Shown one piece after another: positions 1 through 41,353 of a DNA stretch of 41,353 nt. Source of the DNA: a virus; the IMG/VR virus record IMGVR_UViG_3300022851_000006, positions 1-41,353 of that record; one strand, given 5' to 3'. The translations under genes were made by a program, and so were the position numbers. The notes beneath the pieces were generated by a model. The model saw only the letters and a list, made by a program, of their open reading frames with translations. It had not been told where the DNA came from and searched no databases. The stretch's first letter is position 1. Each line of letters begins with the position of its first letter.

Positions 1-732
1 TTTATTGAACCTAACATCTTAGAAGATTGCGTGTTCTACGAAGATGGGATTGCTGTGGGTTTTTATATTAAAAAAATGCCTAAAAAAATGTGCAAGTTGG
101 CGGACTTAGCTGATAACTTGCTAAGGACTAAAGATGTTCCTAAGTCTGAGATGAAAAGAGCCCCAACGGACGGGGTGGATGAAAAAACAGGAAAATATAA
201 ATATAAGAATGTTGTATTACAATATTCAACAATCATAGGAAGCATCCCGCCCAAACCCCATATGAAAAGGGATTACGCTGGGCGTTCTAGTGTGCACGGC
301 GTTAAGTCAGCACAACCTTTTATAAAAACAATGTTGCTCCTCGCCAATGAAAGCGAGATTTTGATAAAAGAAATCTTGCCAGAACAACACAAAGCACAAT
401 TAAAATTATTTGAGCAAGTTGATCAAAAATGGAGATTCGGCAATATTTGGACTAGCTCTATTTCAAATTATAATATATCTGCACCATTCCACAGAGATAC
501 TGGCAACATAGTTGGTGCTATTAATGTTATTATAACAAAAAGACTAAACTCAATTGGTGGCAACCTACACGTACCTGACTATGGAGCTACTATGGATAGT
601 GCTAATAATTCAATTTTAGTTTATCCAGCTTGGAAAAATATACACGGAGTAACACCCATCATACCTACTTTCGAAGGAGGGTATAGAAACTCTTTAATAT
701 TCTATCCTCTCAAAGCATTTGTAAATAACTAA
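1..732 (+). CDS. 2OG-Fe(II) dioxygenase, phage TET/JBP-like (3' part; gene starts at 41167 across the circular join)
   Basis: The reading frame is already open at base 1. Joined to 41167-41226 it gives a 263-residue protein starting MKRIDLIKISH. The C-terminal half has the double-stranded beta-helix iron site: H184-R-D186 in APFHRDTGN, H235 in IHGVTPI, and 2-oxoglutarate-binding R249 in YRNSLIFY. The GGNLHVPDY stretch between them matches my memory of phage TET/JBP oxygenases, which oxidise 5-methylcytosine or thymine in DNA. Context agrees: a ParB-like gene lies upstream, terminase small subunit follows after 1 nt, and a C5-cytosine methyltransferase is encoded at 33579-34577. Seen: the HxD...H...R spacing. 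Inferred: a DNA-base substrate. Another 2OG oxygenase role (protein or nucleotide hydroxylase) is possible. Confidence 0.75.
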   Translation, partial: FIEPNILEDCVFYEDGIAVGFYIKKMPKKMCKLADLADNLLRTKDVPKSEMKRAPTDGVDEKTGKYKYKNVVLQYSTIIGSIPPKPHMKRDYAGRSSVHGVKSAQPFIKTMLLLANESEILIKEILPEQHKAQLKLFEQVDQKWRFGNIWTSSISNYNISAPFHRDTGNIVGAINVIITKRLNSIGGNLHVPDYGATMDSANNSILVYPAWKNIHGVTPIIPTFEGGYRNSLIFYPLKAFVNN

Positions 733-733
733 T

Positions 734-1204
734 ATGACAAAGAAAAAACCAAAAAGTGAACATAAAAAGGAACTTATGAAAATAGAAAGAAAAAATGGGA
801 GACCTACAAAACACGAAGTTAGATATAAGGATGCTGGTAGACCACCTGCAATTACTCAAGATAAGGTCAATCAATTTAAGACGGCTTTTGGGAATGGGCT
901 AACAATAGATCAAGCTTGTATTTTCGCGAACATATCAAAACAGACTTATTATAATCACGGCAAAAAGAACCTAACTTTCTTTGACGAAATGGATGCTGTG
1001 CGTAAGCGTGTTGATATTCAAGCTAAAGTCAATGTTGTGAAGTTAATTAAAGATGGTAGCTATGAAGCTTCTAAATTCTGGCTAAGTACAAAATGTAAAG
1101 ATGAATTTAGCTTGAGGACTGAGACAACGGGTAAAGATGGGCAAGAGTTAAATTATACATCTATTAAAATAGTAGATGGTAAAGAGACAATAGAATTGAA
1201 ATAG
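734..1204 (+). CDS. terS: Terminase small subunit
   Basis: 156 residues. After a Lys/Arg-rich N-terminus comes a helix-turn-helix at about residues 55-75 (GLTIDQACIFANISKQTYYN) and the C-terminal KDEFSLRTETTGKDG, a wording common in phage small terminases. It would recognise the packaging site and load the large subunit. It begins 1 nt after the dioxygenase stop, so the two are probably cotranscribed. The large subunit lies unusually far away, beyond an ~800 bp gap, whereas terS and terL normally touch. The family assignment rests on the HTH, length and position. Confidence 0.75.
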   Translation: MTKKKPKSEHKKELMKIERKNGRPTKHEVRYKDAGRPPAITQDKVNQFKTAFGNGLTIDQACIFANISKQTYYNHGKKNLTFFDEMDAVRKRVDIQAKVNVVKLIKDGSYEASKFWLSTKCKDEFSLRTETTGKDGQELNYTSIKIVDGKETIELK

Positions 1205-1301
1205 TATATAACGGGACGTTGCTTTTTTAGATTGTCAATAGATTTTTAGTAAAAATCAAGATATTTATTTAAAATAAATGCAAATAAATTTATTATATGT
1301 A

Positions 1302-1329
1302 TTGACATTATAAAATTGATGAGTAAAAT
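1302..1329 (+). promoter_or_regulatory. Sigma70-type promoter in the terS-terL gap
   Basis: TTGACA (1302-1307), 16-bp spacer, TAAAAT (1324-1329). The -35 is perfect and the -10 matches 5 of 6. Transcription would start near 1336 and run first through the structured gap, then into the secreted-protein and terL genes. Confidence 0.65.
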
Positions 1330-1394
1330 TTGTGATGCGGATTAATTACCCGTGCTATTCAACTTTTTCGTTGTGTATTCAAGGCATTTGTGAG

Positions 1395-1410
1395 GTGGTA
1401 GAAATACCAC
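1395..1410 (+). ncRNA. GAAA-tetraloop hairpin inside the candidate RNA
   Basis: GTGGTA (1395-1400), GAAA loop, TACCAC (1405-1410): a perfect 6-bp stem with a GNRA tetraloop. The left arm plus loop recurs at 1497-1509 without the matching right arm. GNRA loops are typical tertiary-contact elements of large structured RNAs. Confidence 0.5.
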
Positions 1411-1784
1411 TTTACTTCTAGTTTTGATTAAAAAATAGCAATAAATGTCGTGAATAATACATAGCGAATATCAAAAGAAATATGTGTAGAGTTCTAGTGG
1501 TAGAAATACAAGAAACTTACTCGGATTATTCAAATCGGCTCTTTTTCTAATTAATTAAGCTCTATTCGTAAAAAATGATATAACAAGTTTTTTAAATCTT
1601 GTTAGAAACCTTGAGTGCTATTTGTCTGGTATTCTAGGACTTAGTGATGTGAAAGCATTGACCGTTGGGTATGACACAGTAAAAGCACCGCCAACCTGCT
1701 TGCTATTGAAAAACTATAGTTGTGAGACAAACCTATCGTTCTGAGACGTTGACCTTGACTCAAAAACAAGACAATTCAAAAAAT

Positions 1785-1813
1785 ATAGGAATTCCTCTAG
1801 TAGGGATTCCTAT
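1785..1813 (+). terminator. Strong 12-bp hairpin, possible 3' end of the RNA
   Basis: ATAGGAATTCCT (1785-1796) pairs with AGGGATTCCTAT (1802-1813) around a 5-nt loop, with one G-T pair. No clear T-run follows, so it may cap a stable RNA or act as a processing signal rather than an intrinsic terminator. Confidence 0.5.
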
Positions 1814-2020
1814 GTCTAAACATTGCCTTTAGCCTAAAAACATTAACATTTAAACTAATAAATAAGATTACTAAGTTAGTCAACTTAAGTAATTATCTAA
1901 AATGTATTTATTAGTTGAAAATCAAATAAAATTTCAAATAGATTAACAAAATATTAACCCTTGATTTTAAAGGTTTAAATGCCTATGCTTCATCGCACGG
2001 TTAAAACTTTAACAACAAAT

Positions 2021-2191
2021 ATGAGATACATAATTACAACAATATTAGTTTTTTTCTCTATAAATGCATTTGCACAAGTGCCATACTACAAAGAGCGTAT
2101 TGAGGACGGCAAAGAATGTCGTTATTTCTATTCTGGGGTTCAAAATGGACAAGAACAATTAGTAAGTGTTCAATGTTGGAATGCAGATTGA
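2021..2191 (+). CDS. Small exported protein
   Basis: 56 residues starting MRYIITTILVFFSINAFAQ, a short signal peptide with an AFA cleavage site, followed by a 37-residue mature part with two cysteines (KEC and QCW) that could form a disulphide. An in-frame ATG at 1979 would add 14 residues ahead of the signal peptide; I prefer 2021 because it puts the basic residue directly before the hydrophobic core. Its end overlaps the terL start. Function unknown; a periplasmic or superinfection-related role is only a guess. Confidence 0.55.
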   Translation: MRYIITTILVFFSINAFAQVPYYKERIEDGKECRYFYSGVQNGQEQLVSVQCWNAD

Positions 2192-3458
2192 AATAAACAA
2201 AGAAAACTTCTTACCCCATCAATTTAAATTTCTTCAATCACAGAAGCAAATCCTAGCTTTAGTTAGTGGCTTTGGTGCTGGTAAAACCTACGCTTTCCTG
2301 CGAAAAACATTAATTCATCATATAATAAATAAACGAAAAGATGGCTTGTCAAATGGATGGATAATTTATCCAACTCTTGATCTTGCAAATGAGTTATTTG
2401 TTGAAGATTTTAAACTATTACTAGAAAGTTTAGGGATTAGTTATGAATTTAATATCGCAAGAAATAGATTTAAAACTAAATATGGTAATATTAGGATATA
2501 CACACTAGAGCAACCTAACCGAATGGTGGGTGCAAATTTAACATATGTGGGCTTTGATGAATTTGATACAGTTAAAACCTCGCAAGCTATGAAATGTTTT
2601 CAAAAAGCAATAGGGCGACTAAGGGGCAATGATAAAACACAGCTCTATATCGTAACAACCCCCGAGGGCTATAAAGCGACATACAAAATCTTTGTTGAGA
2701 ACCAAAAACCATCACAAGAAATAATCCACGCTAAAACAAGCGATAATAAGTATTTGCCAGAGACTTTCCAAAAACTATTGGAAGAGCAATATGATGAAAA
2801 GTTATTAAAAGCTTATCTTGGCGGACAATTTGTCAACTTAACTTCTGGCAGTGTCTATTATGCTTTTGATCGTGAAATACATATTGCAAAAGATGAGATG
2901 GTTCCTTTAAATGGTTTTCCAATCAATATTTGCTTTGATTTCAATGTTTATCCCTACTCTGTGAGTTGGTGCCAAACTTTGGCAGATGATAATATAAGAT
3001 TTTTGGGCGAATGGGTTAGCAAATCACATTCAAACACAGAGGAAGCTTGTCTTGAATTAACAAAACTATTGTCAAAAGATGCTGATGTTATAATATACGG
3101 TGATGCTTCTGGCAGAAATGGTTCTGCTAGTAGCAATGTTACAAATTATCAAATAATTGATGCAATTTTCAAAAATTACTTTAAAAGTGTAAATTATAGA
3201 GTGCCGACTGGCAATCCCGCTGTTAAAGATAGATTAAATTGTGTTAATGCAAAATTAGGTAAGAACCATATTAGATTCAATCCCTCTTGCATCAAATTGA
3301 TCCAAGATTTGGAGCAAGTAACTTGGAACGAGAAAGGCACGGAGCTGGAGAAGAGCGATATTGCAAGAACACACTCAAGCGATGGTGCTGGTTATTTTAT
3401 ATGGGCTGAATATCCTATTCAAAATTTAAGAGAAAAACATAAAACACGGAGTTTATAA
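2166..3458 (+). CDS. terL: Terminase large subunit
   Basis: 430 residues. ATPase part: Walker A GFGAGKT (35-41), Walker B VGFDEFD (118-124), coupling segment VTTPEG (about 153-158). Nuclease part: CFDFN (256-260), YGDASG (311-316) and the third acidic position in RTHSSDGAGY (401-410), the usual acidic metal-binding triad. It pumps DNA into the prohead and cuts it. The start may be 2166, overlapping the upstream small gene by 26 nt, or the ATG at 2181 (MQIEINKENF). The portal gene follows after 1 nt. Confidence 0.92.
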   Translation: MFNVGMQIEINKENFLPHQFKFLQSQKQILALVSGFGAGKTYAFLRKTLIHHIINKRKDGLSNGWIIYPTLDLANELFVEDFKLLLESLGISYEFNIARNRFKTKYGNIRIYTLEQPNRMVGANLTYVGFDEFDTVKTSQAMKCFQKAIGRLRGNDKTQLYIVTTPEGYKATYKIFVENQKPSQEIIHAKTSDNKYLPETFQKLLEEQYDEKLLKAYLGGQFVNLTSGSVYYAFDREIHIAKDEMVPLNGFPINICFDFNVYPYSVSWCQTLADDNIRFLGEWVSKSHSNTEEACLELTKLLSKDADVIIYGDASGRNGSASSNVTNYQIIDAIFKNYFKSVNYRVPTGNPAVKDRLNCVNAKLGKNHIRFNPSCIKLIQDLEQVTWNEKGTELEKSDIARTHSSDGAGYFIWAEYPIQNLREKHKTRSL

Positions 3459-25581: not shown

Positions 25582-26511
25582 TTATAAATCAAAAGTCTTT
25601 TCTAGCTCAATCCATTGCCTAAGACTAACGCCACTTTGTTCTTGAGTAATATTCTCGCCTTTTAATTTTCTTTTTAAAATATCAATTTCTAATCCTGATA
25701 ATTCTTTGCCAGCAATTCTGTGTTCAAAAAAAGCTTCATAACAATAAGGCACCCATTTTTTGACAAGGTCTAACATTACATTAGCATATTGGCGTATTTC
25801 GTATTGGGCGTGATTATCAGCACGTAAGAATAAAAAATTAAGTAAATTATGCAAATCAATTTTCCAATACCATTGAGTGTAGCAATTAACTGGCAAATTT
25901 ATTCTTGCTAATTCTCTTGCTAAACCATCTTTGTTTTCGTCAACAATATTGCCCTGATTATCTTGATTAATCATTTCTAGATAGTGGTCATAGCATTGTT
26001 TTGCATCATTTTTTAGTAATTGCAAAACCTTTTTTTGTTGGTCAACACTTAGGGGTTTGCTTTCATCTCTGCCTTGGTGGTTGATTTTTGATTGTGGTGA
26101 TAAAACTTCTGCATTGGGGATATAAAATTCATCTTCCATAATAGAATATCTTGCAGAATATTCATTAACTGATGCTGTTCTATGGCGAATCCATTGCCTG
26201 GCAATAAAGATTGGTAATTTGATATGAAATTTTATCTCACACATCTCAAGAGGGGTATTGTGTCTATGGCTAATTAAATATTTTATTAAGCCCTTATCAG
26301 CGTTAATTTTTTTTGTTCCTGCTCCATATGAAACTCTAGCTGCTTGCACCACAGAAGAATCGTTACCCATATAATCCACAACCCTGACGAAACCGTGGTC
26401 AAGAACTTCAAAAGGTTGATATAATACTTCTTCTAAACCTTGCTTTAAATTGCTCTTCAAGAAGTTTTGTATCGCCCTCAAGAAGAGAATTAAGATTTTG
26501 TATTTTATCAC
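25582..26511 (-). CDS. thyX: Flavin-dependent thymidylate synthase ThyX
   Basis: 309 residues as drawn. The ThyX signature [15 protein letters not shown] is intact (109-123), and [23 protein letters not shown] and the C-terminal [19 protein letters not shown] are typical. It makes dTMP from dUMP using methylene-tetrahydrofolate, FAD and NADPH. The first 17 residues are hydrophobic and overlap the upstream gene by 104 nt; the TTG at 26460 ([19 protein letters not shown]) is a better family-like start. Most similar, by memory, to alphaproteobacterial ThyX. Confidence 0.93.
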
Positions 26512-26932
26512 TTAAATCTCTTCGTTCTTCGTCTAGTTTTTCTAAAAGATTTTTCGTTAAAAAAGCAGTAAATGAAATTTTTGGTTGTATTATATTGACG
26601 CTGTCAGGAATCCAAGAATTAGGTTTATCTGTCATATAACTATCTTCAAATTTTGATAAAGTATCTGCCGGCTCTATTACTTCCTTATAACCCTCACAAT
26701 TCTTACAAAGCACACAATTCTTGCAATTCTTACAACTCACACAATCCTCACAATCCTCACAATTCTCACAATTCTCACAACTCACACAATTCTCACAATT
26801 CTTGCAATCAATCAGACTCTCCAAAGCCTTAATTGCCCTTCTCTCATTGCCAAAATACTCAACCGAGCAATAATTATCGTTTTCGTCAATAAACCAAGTT
26901 ACCCCATTCATAATTTCTTTTCTATGTTCCAT
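26408..26932 (-). CDS. Cysteine-array protein (13 Cys at every third residue)
   Basis: 174 residues. After a 40-residue start comes a run of about 37 residues (43-79) where every third residue is Cys, with mostly Lys/Glu/Asn/Asp/Val/Ser between (units such as CENC, CEDC, CKNC). The C-terminal 75 residues include a coiled coil ([19 protein letters not shown]). The spacing suits metal clustering or a regular solenoid. DNA repeats encode it, so copy number can vary. Not recognised; overlaps the thyX frame. Confidence 0.65.
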
Positions 26933-30976: not shown

Positions 30977-31375
30977 TTAAAATTTTGTTTTTAGAAGAAT
31001 AGCACTATCAAAATTAGCACCAGTAAGACTAGCATCAGTAAGATTAGCACTACTAAGATTAGCGTAACTAAGATTAGCGTAACTAAGATTAGCGTAACTA
31101 AGATTAGCGTAACTAAGATTAGTACCACTAATATTAGCACCAATAAGATTAGCATCAGTAAGATTAGTACCACTAAGATTAGTACCACTAAGATTAGTAT
31201 TAATAAAATAAGCATCAGTAAGATCAGCCCCAGTAAGATCAGCCCCAGTAAGATTAGTACCACTAAGATTAGTACCACTAAGATATTTTTTATTTTGGAC
31301 TACCAACTCTTTAAGTTCTAAAGATTCATCTTCAAACATTATTGTATCATTATAATAATTTAATATTCTGGCCAT
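30977..31375 (-). CDS. Pentapeptide-repeat protein
   Basis: 132 residues. From about residue 33 to the end there are roughly 18 A(D/N)LXX-type units (GTNLS, GADLT, YANLS, SANLT), a right-handed quadrilateral beta-helix. The DNA shows the same 15-bp unit four times in a row (31068-31127 region), so length may vary by slippage. Proteins of this fold can mimic DNA and bind gyrase. N-terminal 30 residues are not repeats. Confidence 0.85.
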   Translation of the reverse strand: MARILNYYNDTIMFEDESLELKELVVQNKKYLSGTNLSGTNLTGADLTGADLTDAYFINTNLSGTNLSGTNLTDANLIGANISGTNLSYANLSYANLSYANLSYANLSSANLTDASLTGANFDSAILLKTKF

Positions 31376-33578: not shown

Positions 33579-34577
33579 TTATTTAATTAAAGTGGTTAAA
33601 ATATGCTTAATAACCGGCACGGTAAATGAGTTTCCTAAACCTTTGTAGGCTTGAGTATTGCTAACACAATTTGTATAACCATCTGGGAAGCCTTGCAATC
33701 TTTCGCATTCTGTGGGTGTAAGTTTTCTAACCGTATAATCATCATCCGGTAAATCTATTTTATAAAGCCCTGTTTTTGCTCCTCTGCCCCCACCGTTTGC
33801 AGATAAACAAACACTTTTACCAGCGACTGAATATATTCTATCACCTTGCCCGCCACTGTTAAAATGTCCAACCCTAACAACAGTGCAACCGTCATTTCCA
33901 AATCCTTTATGCAATGATGCTGTGAGACAATTAGACTTCTCATTAAATGTTTTAAAGCCTTTTATTTTTCCATTTTTTGTATAATTAGCCAAGGCTTTAT
34001 CATTGATATAATATTTTTCGTCAACATTACTTTCTAAAATATCTTTTAAATAGATTTTTTTATCAACCGGTTGTTCAATATCCACTTTTTTATAGCTTCC
34101 ATCGTCTTGTTTTTCGCCAACAAAATAAATTCTTTTTCTATTTTGGGCTGTTAAAAGTGCAGAATTAATCATCACAAAATCTATTTTAAGATATTCACTC
34201 AAAATCTTCTTATTTTCTTTTGTCATTGAATTAACATTTTCAAACACAAAATATTTAGGTTTGGTTTGCTCTAAAATTCTTAGTAATTCAAAGAATAATT
34301 GCCCCCTCTCATCTTCCAATCCTTTGCCATTTCCAGCTATTGAAAACGATTGGCAAGGAAAGCCACCAATTAATAAATCTACATCAACAACACTTCCTCC
34401 AATGTTTCTAACATCGCCCATTTGTATAATATCTGGGTGGTTAGCTTTTGATACTTGAATAGCATATTTATCAATCTCGCTTGAATAATAATCGCAATCA
34501 ATATTTAATTCTTTGAGTGCTTGTCTAGCGCCAGAAATTCCATCAAATAATGATATTACCCTAAGTTTTTTGTTCAT
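33579..34577 (-). CDS. DNA (cytosine-5) methyltransferase
   Basis: 332 residues with all main motifs: I (VISLFDGISGARQAL), IV with the catalytic Cys75 (GGFPCQSFS), VI (FENV, 112-115), VIII (QNRKRIYFVG, 145-154), IX (RKLTPTECERLQGFP, 284-298) and X (GNSF, 315-318). The target domain of ~120 residues is single, so one recognition sequence. It would make 5mC in phage DNA for protection from host restriction, and provide the substrate for the TET/JBP-like oxygenase. No partner restriction endonuclease is seen. Confidence 0.95.
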   Translation of the reverse strand: MNKKLRVISLFDGISGARQALKELNIDCDYYSSEIDKYAIQVSKANHPDIIQMGDVRNIGGSVVDVDLLIGGFPCQSFSIAGNGKGLEDERGQLFFELLRILEQTKPKYFVFENVNSMTKENKKILSEYLKIDFVMINSALLTAQNRKRIYFVGEKQDDGSYKKVDIEQPVDKKIYLKDILESNVDEKYYINDKALANYTKNGKIKGFKTFNEKSNCLTASLHKGFGNDGCTVVRVGHFNSGGQGDRIYSVAGKSVCLSANGGGRGAKTGLYKIDLPDDDYTVRKLTPTECERLQGFPDGYTNCVSNTQAYKGLGNSFTVPVIKHILTTLIK

Positions 34578-40403: not shown

Positions 40404-40565
40404 ATGATATTTTTTAAGAAAAAAAAACAACTTATTAAATTAACAAAAGATTATGATGATTTGTGGAGCGATCAAAAAGATCTGCTAGAGATTAATAATG
40501 ATTTAAAGAATGATATTATTATATTGCAACATCAACTAAAAAAAGCTAATGACAGCAAAAACTAA
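40404..40565 (+). CDS. Small coiled-coil protein
   Basis: 53 residues, MIFFKKKKQLIKLTKDYDDL then DQKDLLEINNDLKNDIIILQ, a leucine/isoleucine-heptad helix. Basic start, acidic middle. Overlaps the ParB gene start by 17 nt. Function unknown, possibly a partner of the ParB-like protein. Confidence 0.55.
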   Translation: MIFFKKKKQLIKLTKDYDDLWSDQKDLLEINNDLKNDIIILQHQLKKANDSKN

Positions 40566-41160
40566 CGTCAACAAAAGAATAACTTGGAAGATTGAAACTA
40601 GAAAATTAGTTGACTTGAAGCCTCACCCGAAAAATCCAAGAGAATTTACAGAAAAAGGTATGAAAGACCTTGAAAATTCTATTAATTCCATTGGTTTTAT
40701 GCAACCAATCAATATCAATCAAGATGGAATTATTTTGAGTGGACATGCAAGAACATTGAAGTTGAAGCAGATGGGCGAGACAGAAGTTGATGTTTATGTT
40801 CCTGACAGAGTTTTAACACCAAAACAAGAAGATGAGGTTCTAGTTAGAGCTAATGCCAACACAGCTGGAAAGTGGGATTTTGATATTTTAGCAAATGAAT
40901 TTGAAGATTTTGAGTTAGTTGAATGGGGGCTAGAGATACCAGAGTTAACACCAGAAATTGATTTATCTTTACTTGACGAGGAGGATCTAAGTAGTCAAAT
41001 GGCAGATATGGCAGATGGAGTTAGAAAAGCTATACAAATAGAATTTGAGCCTCACCACTATGAAGAAGCTTTTGAGTTAGTTAAATTTTGGAGAAATCAA
41101 GGGGTATATGTAGGCAAGATGCTGATAGACCTTTTAAAAACAAAACAAAAAACATTATAA
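40549..41160 (+). CDS. ParB-like nuclease-domain protein
   Basis: 203 residues. ParB/sulfiredoxin-fold motifs: VDLKPHPKNPREF (NPR at 29-31), ENSINSIGFMQPININ and the GHARTLKLKQMG box (65-76), followed by PDRVLTPKQEDEVLVRANAN. In phages such proteins often precede or are fused to DNA methylases and base-modifying enzymes, acting as DNA-binding or nicking/NTP-using modules. The dioxygenase gene starts 6 nt later. No partition partner ParA is present, so a partition role is unlikely. Confidence 0.82.
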   Translation: MTAKTNVNKRITWKIETRKLVDLKPHPKNPREFTEKGMKDLENSINSIGFMQPININQDGIILSGHARTLKLKQMGETEVDVYVPDRVLTPKQEDEVLVRANANTAGKWDFDILANEFEDFELVEWGLEIPELTPEIDLSLLDEEDLSSQMADMADGVRKAIQIEFEPHHYEEAFELVKFWRNQGVYVGKMLIDLLKTKQKTL

Positions 41161-41166
41161 TATAAT

Positions 41167-41353
41167 ATGAAGAGGATTGATTTAATTAAGATCTCTCACA
41201 ATGTAAAAATGGGGCAAGAATGCCCATTTATTGAACCTAACATCTTAGAAGATTGCGTGTTCTACGAAGATGGGATTGCTGTGGGTTTTTATATTAAAAA
41301 AATGCCTAAAAAAATGTGCAAGTTGGCGGACTTAGCTGATAACTTGCTAAGGA
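41167..41353 (+). CDS. 5' part of the TET/JBP-like dioxygenase (continues at base 1)
   Basis: The gene begins at ATG 41167 (MKRIDLIKISHNVKMGQECP), and after 20 codons enters the 127-base duplicate of the window start. See the entry at 1-732 for the enzyme. Starting 6 nt after the ParB-like stop, it shares that operon. Confidence 0.8.
   Translation, partial: MKRIDLIKISHNVKMGQECPFIEPNILEDCVFYEDGIAVGFYIKKMPKKMCKLADLADNLLR
41227..41353. repeat. 127-base terminal duplication of the window start
   Basis: Bases 41227-41353 equal 1-127 without a mismatch. The length equals a common assembler k-mer, so it most simply marks a circular contig. The true virion DNA may be circularly permuted and terminally redundant. 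Confidence 0.9.

What the first reader, a model, noticed from the sequence alone, without database searches (positions are those of the whole stretch)
1..732. Candidate cytosine hypermodification: C5-methyltransferase plus TET/JBP-like oxygenase plus ParB-like protein
The oxygenase keeps HxD (184-186), H235 and R249, and the genome encodes a complete C5-cytosine methyltransferase. Known phage TET systems oxidise methyltransferase-made 5mC. Here the two lie in different operons (late-side plus strand versus early minus strand), suggesting timing: methylate first, oxidise around packaging, as the oxygenase neighbours the terminase. No glycosyltransferase or other tailoring enzyme is visible, so the end product may be plain 5hmC, 5fC or 5caC.
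Basis: partly seen in the sequence, partly recalled or inferred. Interest (0 to 1): 0.8.

Follow-up and report, generated by a model that had tools for sequence, protein, structure and literature searches.

The report
Phage TET-like DNA base oxidase cassette
This bacterial virus carries a relative of the human TET enzymes that oxidise DNA bases, paired with a ParB-like partner; related viruses keep the pair but almost never the cytosine methyltransferase, so it more likely oxidises thymine than methylcytosine.

Summary
The gene spans the contig's 127-bp circular overlap (41167-41353 joined to 1-732) and encodes 263 aa with H184xD186, H235 and R249. A confident model (pLDDT 93.8) matches NgTET1, TET2, CcTet and CMD1 first, so it is a TET/JBP-fold oxygenase. 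A ParB-like gene lies 6 bp upstream, terminase genes lie downstream, and a complete C5-cytosine methyltransferase lies at 33579-34577.

The interpretation (methylate C, then oxidise 5mC) is not supported by comparison. Among 49 cassette-bearing records of 28 kb or more, only 5 carry any C5-methyltransferase. ParB is found upstream in 68 of 75 dereplicated loci. Between ParB and oxygenase sits a swappable tailoring gene: TET-associated glycosyltransferase, FkbM methyltransferase, a GT-B-like protein, or an amino-acid:DNA-transferase-like protein plus kinase. The last pair, and the same enzymes in actinophages, belong to 5-hydroxymethyluracil (thymine) chemistry. The window phage lacks any slot gene, as do a few relatives, yet its oxygenase is under strong purifying selection.

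Best reading: a minimal ParB-oxygenase cassette making 5-hydroxymethyluracil in phage DNA before packaging; the methyltransferase is separate. The substrate base is inferred, not shown. A variant of a known, previously predicted kind.

The parts
41167..41353 (+). N-terminal part of the TET/JBP-like oxygenase gene (ATG at 41167); continues at window position 1 through the circular junction (41227-41353 repeats 1-127)
   Evidence: 127-bp terminal overlap and joined translation of 263 aa without stops; open ORF
1..732 (+). Residues 21-263 of the oxygenase: H184 (490-492), D186 (496-498), H235 (643-645), R249 (685-687)
   Evidence: PF12851 E=8.5e-8; PHROG 6059 E=5.4e-52; model pLDDT 93.8; closest solved folds NgTET1, TET2, CcTet, CMD1; catalytic residues invariant
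40549..41160 (+). ParB-like protein (203 aa), 6 bp upstream of the oxygenase; the conserved partner
   Evidence: ParB_N E=0.0014; PHROG 620 E=9.5e-28 and N-terminal part of a phage DNA methyltransferase family, PHROG 498, E=8.7e-24; present upstream in 68 of 75 dereplicated loci
734..1204 (+). Terminase small subunit, next gene downstream
   Evidence: PHROG 4102 E=1.1e-15
2166..3458 (+). Terminase large subunit; cassette lies directly upstream of terminase genes in relatives too
   Evidence: PF03237 E=4e-15; TerL cluster near the oxygenase in 63 of 97 dereplicated loci
33579..34577 (-). C5-cytosine DNA methyltransferase, complete; judged a separate function, not part of the cassette
   Evidence: PF00145 E=5.3e-61, TIGR00675 E=3.1e-66, nearest solved relatives M.HhaI; PF00145 absent from most cassette-bearing records

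Best explanation
The window phage carries a minimal form of a widespread phage DNA-base modification cassette: a ParB-like DNA-associated protein followed at once by a TET/JBP-fold Fe(II)/2-oxoglutarate oxygenase, upstream of the terminase genes. I think it most likely that the oxygenase hydroxylates the methyl group of thymine in replicated phage DNA to give 5-hydroxymethyluracil (possibly oxidised further), with the ParB-like protein delivering it to DNA, before or during packaging, as protection against host nucleases. In most relatives a third enzyme in the slot between the two genes then caps the hydroxyl with sugar, methyl or amino acid; here that slot is empty, so the end product is probably the bare oxidised base. 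The C5-methyltransferase elsewhere in the genome is most likely an independent anti-restriction enzyme. Shown here: fold, catalytic residues, cassette architecture, its swapping, absence of the methyltransferase from relatives, purifying selection. Inferred: substrate base, the role of ParB, timing, protection.
For: Fold: top 26 Foldseek rows are CcTet, TET2, CMD1 and NgTET1 chains (E 5.8e-10 to 1.3e-7), ahead of FTO/AlkB; VIA Z 18.5 for NgTET1 over 201 residues. Profile of the family finds CMD1 (E=7.7e-4) and TET2 (0.009) in PDB sequences. Architecture: ParB upstream in 68 of 75 dereplicated loci, slot gene TAGT-like 36, FkbM 22, GT-B-like 4, ADDT 2 (families). Slot label needs 32 changes on the oxygenase tree. 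No methyltransferase: PF00145 in 5 of 49 records of 28 kb or more; the two nearest relatives of the window's methyltransferase lie in contigs without the oxygenase in the DNA held. Thymine chemistry: Gordonia and Rhodococcus phages have ParB, oxygenase, ADDT (PF18724) and P-loop kinase (PF18751) in one operon, described as a thymine hypermodification system in PMC11955845; locus L078, 67% identical to the window protein, has ParB, an ADDT-like protein (hhalign E=4.6e-8 to the actinophage ones), a P-loop kinase and the oxygenase. Selection: pS 0.81-0.88 against pN 0.115-0.17 for the window gene; dN/dS 0.05 for slot-less L009 against slot-bearing L004.
Against: No biochemistry. The only phage TET activity reported to my knowledge acts on 5mC (Burke et al. 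2021, known here through citations in PMC11404850 and PMC12730594). All solved TET-fold relatives act on methylcytosine or methyladenine. TAGT enzymes also act on cytosine: T6 TAGT adds glucose to glucosylated 5hmC (PMC13216743). The window does encode a C5-methyltransferase, and hosts may supply 5mC. A divergent methyltransferase could escape PF00145. The ADDT-like match of L078 rests on two small alignments and 87 columns, and its kinase is matched only weakly to known kinase families.
Confidence: 0.6

Rival explanations
1. One reading: the phage C5-methyltransferase makes 5mC early in infection, and the oxygenase converts it to 5hmC, 5fC or 5caC around packaging.
For: Both enzymes are complete and intact in one genome; the fold is closest to 5mC oxidases; phage TETs paired with C5-methyltransferases are known (Burke et al. 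2021, cited in PMC12730594).
Against: Cassette present without a C5-methyltransferase in 44 of 49 long records, including complete genomes; the methyltransferase lies about 6 kb away on the other strand; its two detected relatives lie without the oxygenase in the DNA held; the methyltransferases of G002 and G004 are only 29-33% identical to the window's, so they look independently acquired.
Confidence: 0.2
2. A broad-specificity pyrimidine oxidase: it acts on thymine by default and also on 5mC where the phage or host supplies it, so this phage carries both oxidised bases.
For: Explains conservation without a methyltransferase and the presence of one here; the invariant Asn189 sits three residues after Asp186, where TET2 has a base-contacting Asn (alignment; base contact is general knowledge), and an Asn side chain could pair with either base.
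Against: No direct data; a single substrate suffices to explain the pattern.
Confidence: 0.12
3. A decaying remnant: the slot gene was lost and the remaining pair no longer modifies DNA usefully.
For: The nearest relatives on the tree (L002, L014, L003) have a slot gene; no tailoring enzyme remains in the window.
Against: All catalytic residues are intact and synonymous change far exceeds replacement change; slot-less pairs recur (L009, L011, L192, L267).
Confidence: 0.05

Closest known systems
ParB / Tet-like J-binding protein / aGPT-PPlase2 (ADDT) / 5hmU kinase operon of actinophages (Rhodococcus Tonitrus, Gordonia CaiB and Wooper, Mycobacterium cluster B gp1-gp2)
   Same: ParB-like gene before a TET/JBP oxygenase, upstream of the terminase; homologous oxygenases (about 25-30% identity)
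   Different: The window phage has no kinase, transferase, glycosyltransferase or deacetylase; it is a distant AT-rich relative
Cassette of Prochlorococcus phage MED4-184 (CPAG_00033-00037)
   Same: 51% identical oxygenase over its full length, ParB-like gene, terminase downstream, no C5-methyltransferase in the genome
   Different: MED4-184 has an FkbM-type methyltransferase between ParB and oxygenase; the window has nothing there
Phage TET + C5-methyltransferase + glycosyltransferase cytosine hypermodification systems (Burke et al. 2021)
   Same: TET-fold oxygenase; a C5-methyltransferase occurs in the same genome
   Different: Methyltransferase unlinked and not conserved with this oxygenase family; no glycosyltransferase here
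Kinetoplastid base J pathway (JBP1/JBP2 plus J glucosyltransferase)
   Same: Proposed logic: oxidise thymine in DNA, then optionally glycosylate; relatives carry TAGT glycosyltransferases
   Different: Prokaryotic virus, ParB partner, no J-binding domain; thymine activity unproven; the window lacks the glycosyltransferase

Membership tests
TET/JBP oxygenase superfamily | Double-stranded beta-helix fold of the TET/JBP type | tested here: met
   Model pLDDT 93.8, pTM 0.89; NgTET1 Z 18.5, TET2 17.5, CcTet 16.8, CMD1 15.5, then FTO 15.2; Foldseek ranks all TET-type chains first
TET/JBP oxygenase superfamily | HxD...H iron triad and 2OG-binding Arg | tested here: met
   H184, D186, H235, R249 invariant in 53 and in 62 sequences; they align with the TET2 HRD, H and R positions
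TET/JBP oxygenase superfamily | Score above Pfam PF12851 cut-off | tested here: inconclusive
   Window protein 32.0 bits, cut-off 34.9; relatives 36.3-45.4 bits
TET/JBP oxygenase superfamily | Oxidation of 5mC or T in DNA | not testable with these tools
   Needs enzyme assay or nucleoside mass spectrometry
5mC-TET phage hypermodification system (Burke type) | C5-methyltransferase coupled to and conserved with the oxygenase | tested here: not met
   5 of 49 long records; methyltransferase about 6 kb away on the other strand here
5mC-TET phage hypermodification system (Burke type) | Glycosyltransferase or other tailoring enzyme | tested here: not met
   No TAGT, GT-B, FkbM, ADDT or kinase homologue in six-frame search of the window
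ParB-TET/JBP modification cassette of phages | ParB-like gene upstream of the oxygenase | tested here: met
   6 bp upstream here; 68 of 75 dereplicated loci
ParB-TET/JBP modification cassette of phages | Tailoring enzyme in or near the slot | tested here: not met
   Slot empty in the window, L009, L011, L192 and L267
Queuine tRNA-ribosyltransferase / DpdA (label of PHROG 6059 and of RefSeq records) | Transglycosylase domain instead of a TET/JBP fold | tested here: not met
   Strong PHROG 6059 match, but no transglycosylase family in the Pfam scan and a confident TET/JBP fold

The most novel reading that the evidence does not exclude
These phages use a JBP-like thymine oxygenase with a ParB partner as a fixed core of an exchangeable-cap DNA modification system, a viral counterpart of base J, and the window phage shows that the core alone, leaving bare 5-hydroxymethyluracil, is a working product.
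Probability: 0.4. Interest if true: 0.65.

Novelty: new variant of a known kind. Interest (0 to 1): 0.45.

Why it matters
If the thymine reading is right, TET-fold enzymes in phages split into 5mC oxidases tied to methyltransferases and thymine oxidases that need none. The second group, with hundreds of hits in environmental phages, would make 5-hydroxymethyluracil in finished DNA rather than at the nucleotide level as in the classic thymine-hypermodified phages. The slot-less form gives the simplest construct for testing the base specificity and the role of the ParB-like partner. The result also corrects the label 'queuine tRNA-ribosyltransferase' that this protein family carries in public records.

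Tried and rejected
Queuine tRNA-ribosyltransferase/DpdA (PHROG 6059 label, copied into RefSeq): rejected on fold and motifs. AlkB/FTO or prolyl hydroxylase: rank behind every TET-type chain in Foldseek, though FTO Z values come within 1 of CMD1's. A first model from close relatives only (pLDDT 75.6) was replaced by one from a diverse alignment. Searching PDB sequences with the single protein gave nothing. Rfam: no hit in the window. The methyltransferase as query found only two relatives in viral contigs, so association from that side is weakly tested. The genome collection gave one locus, a Flavobacteriaceae MAG contig with ParB, TAGT, oxygenase and terminase genes; the host of the window phage remains unknown, and its TerL is about 34% identical to enterobacterial siphophage terminases. 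Key papers (Iyer et al. 2013; Burke et al. 2021; Lee et al. 2022) are known or cited but could not be read here. The methyltransferase rate in random phages was not measured, so no claim of depletion below background is made.

Full report
What is there. The window is a circular phage contig: its first and last 127 bases are identical. The oxygenase gene crosses the junction, starting at 41167, re-entering at position 1 and ending at 732; the joined frame encodes 263 aa without a stop. L001, a contig from another metagenome, is 100% identical to the window over 8,233 bases, so the same phage was recovered twice.

Family. Pfam Tet_JBP matches at E=8.5e-8 but slightly under the curated score; the family's other members pass it. 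A model built on a diverse alignment reached mean pLDDT 93.8 and pTM 0.89. In the PDB the first 26 Foldseek rows are chains of CcTet, human TET2, CMD1 and NgTET1; FTO and AlkB-type enzymes follow. VIA-align gives NgTET1 Z 18.5 (2.8 A over 201 residues), TET2 17.5, CcTet 16.8, CMD1 15.5, FTO 15.2. A profile of the family, compared by sequence alone, finds CMD1 (E=7.7e-4) and TET2 (E=0.009) and aligns the metal and 2OG residues.

Neighbourhood. A ParB-like protein ends 6 bp before the oxygenase start; terminase small and large subunits follow. I collected 232 loci encoding relatives and reduced them to 97 at 90% identity. In 75 with at least 1.7 kb upstream, a ParB-like gene was recognised in 68; the rest are mainly actinophages or their relatives with more divergent neighbours. 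Between ParB and oxygenase there is usually one gene: a TET-associated glycosyltransferase or a relative of it (36 loci), an FkbM-type methyltransferase (22), or a GT-B-like protein of about 300 aa (4) (family matches; the GT-B assignment is my reading, no family matched above threshold). On the oxygenase tree these labels change at least 32 times, clustered more than chance but far from one origin each, so the slot is exchanged often. In the window the slot is empty, and no homologue of any slot enzyme or of the kinases was found anywhere in its six frames. Relatives L009 and L011 are also slot-less although L004, only slightly different in the oxygenase, has a glycosyltransferase. L192 and L267 are slot-less too.

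Cytosine or thymine. If the enzyme needed phage-made 5mC, a C5-methyltransferase should travel with it. PF00145 was searched in whole records: 4 of 30, 2 of 38 and 2 of 30 have a match. Restricting to records of 28 kb or more (and leaving out a 2-Mb bacterial MAG) I count 5 of 49. Genomes without it include MED4-184 (38 kb), circular contigs G005 and G016 and the actinophage records of 53-70 kb. The control genomes ring as expected, so the search works. The methyltransferases found in G002 and G004 are 29% and 33% identical to the window's. The window methyltransferase's two detected relatives lie in contigs without the oxygenase in the DNA held.

On the other side, cassette members known from thymine chemistry do occur. 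Gordonia phage Wooper and Rhodococcus phage Tonitrus carry ParB, oxygenase, an amino acid:DNA transferase (PF18724) and a P-loop kinase (PF18751) before the terminase; the authors of PMC11955845 describe this as a thymine hypermodification system and those of PMC9302106 as modification enzymes preceding the terminase, in both cases from sequence. In L078, whose oxygenase is 67% identical to the window's, the slot holds a protein related to those transferases (hhalign E=4.6e-8 over 87 columns; tblastn to Gordonia CaiB gene 3, E=3e-4) and a P-loop kinase (weak matches only). Thymine already has the C5 methyl group, so no methyltransferase is needed. Glycosyltransferases of the TAGT family do not decide the matter, since T6 TAGT works on cytosine (PMC13216743).

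Role of ParB. The ParB-like domain also occurs as the N-terminal part of phage DNA methyltransferases (PHROG 498 match; fusions surveyed in PMC12704722) and next to the cytosine carboxymethyltransferase CmoX (PMC12783734). Its P-motif region is conserved among cassette members (G65 and R68, 100% and 94%). I infer an NTP-regulated DNA-loading or targeting partner for in situ base modification; this is not shown.

Is it alive. Against its nearest relatives the window gene has synonymous differences near saturation (0.81-0.88) and replacement differences of 0.115-0.17; slot-less L009 against slot-bearing L004 gives dN/dS 0.05. The core is constrained with or without a slot enzyme.

Verdict. Observation confirmed; family assignment confirmed; coupling to the cytosine methyltransferase not supported; thymine oxidation to 5-hydroxymethyluracil is the better reading at about 0.6, with 5mC oxidation at 0.2 and dual activity at 0.12. 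Prediction of phage TET/JBP cassettes with ParB and tailoring enzymes is not new (actinophage annotations; Iyer et al. 2013 from my own knowledge, not readable here), so the finding is a variant: a core-only cassette in a widespread family with an exchangeable cap enzyme.

Noticed in passing
window 1205-1978: 774-nt stretch without ORFs of 60 aa or more between the terminase small and large subunit genes; it folds better than shuffled sequence (z -2.78), no Rfam match. Possibly a packaging or regulatory region.
   Followed up: partly
L081:17129-17914, L082:813-1730, L086:813-1691: This oxygenase family is labelled 'queuine tRNA-ribosyltransferase' (PHROG 6059, RefSeq records) or 'DpdA-like'; fold and motifs show a TET/JBP oxygenase, so the public label looks wrong.
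   Followed up: yes
L078:132-3019: Cassette ParB, ADDT-like 338-aa protein, P-loop kinase, oxygenase: a candidate aminoacyl-thymine pathway driven by a TET/JBP oxygenase outside actinophages.
   Followed up: partly
window 26408-26932 (-): Small protein with a run of CxNC/CxxC repeats ([22 protein letters not shown]) overlapping the start region of the thyX gene; no Pfam match.
   Followed up: no
window 30977-31375 (-): Pentapeptide-repeat-like protein (NLSGTNLSGTNL...) in the minus-strand operon.
   Followed up: no
L131:289-3839: The same cassette (ParB, TAGT, oxygenase, terminase genes) on a contig binned in a Flavobacteriaceae MAG, a possible host hint for that relative.
   Followed up: partly
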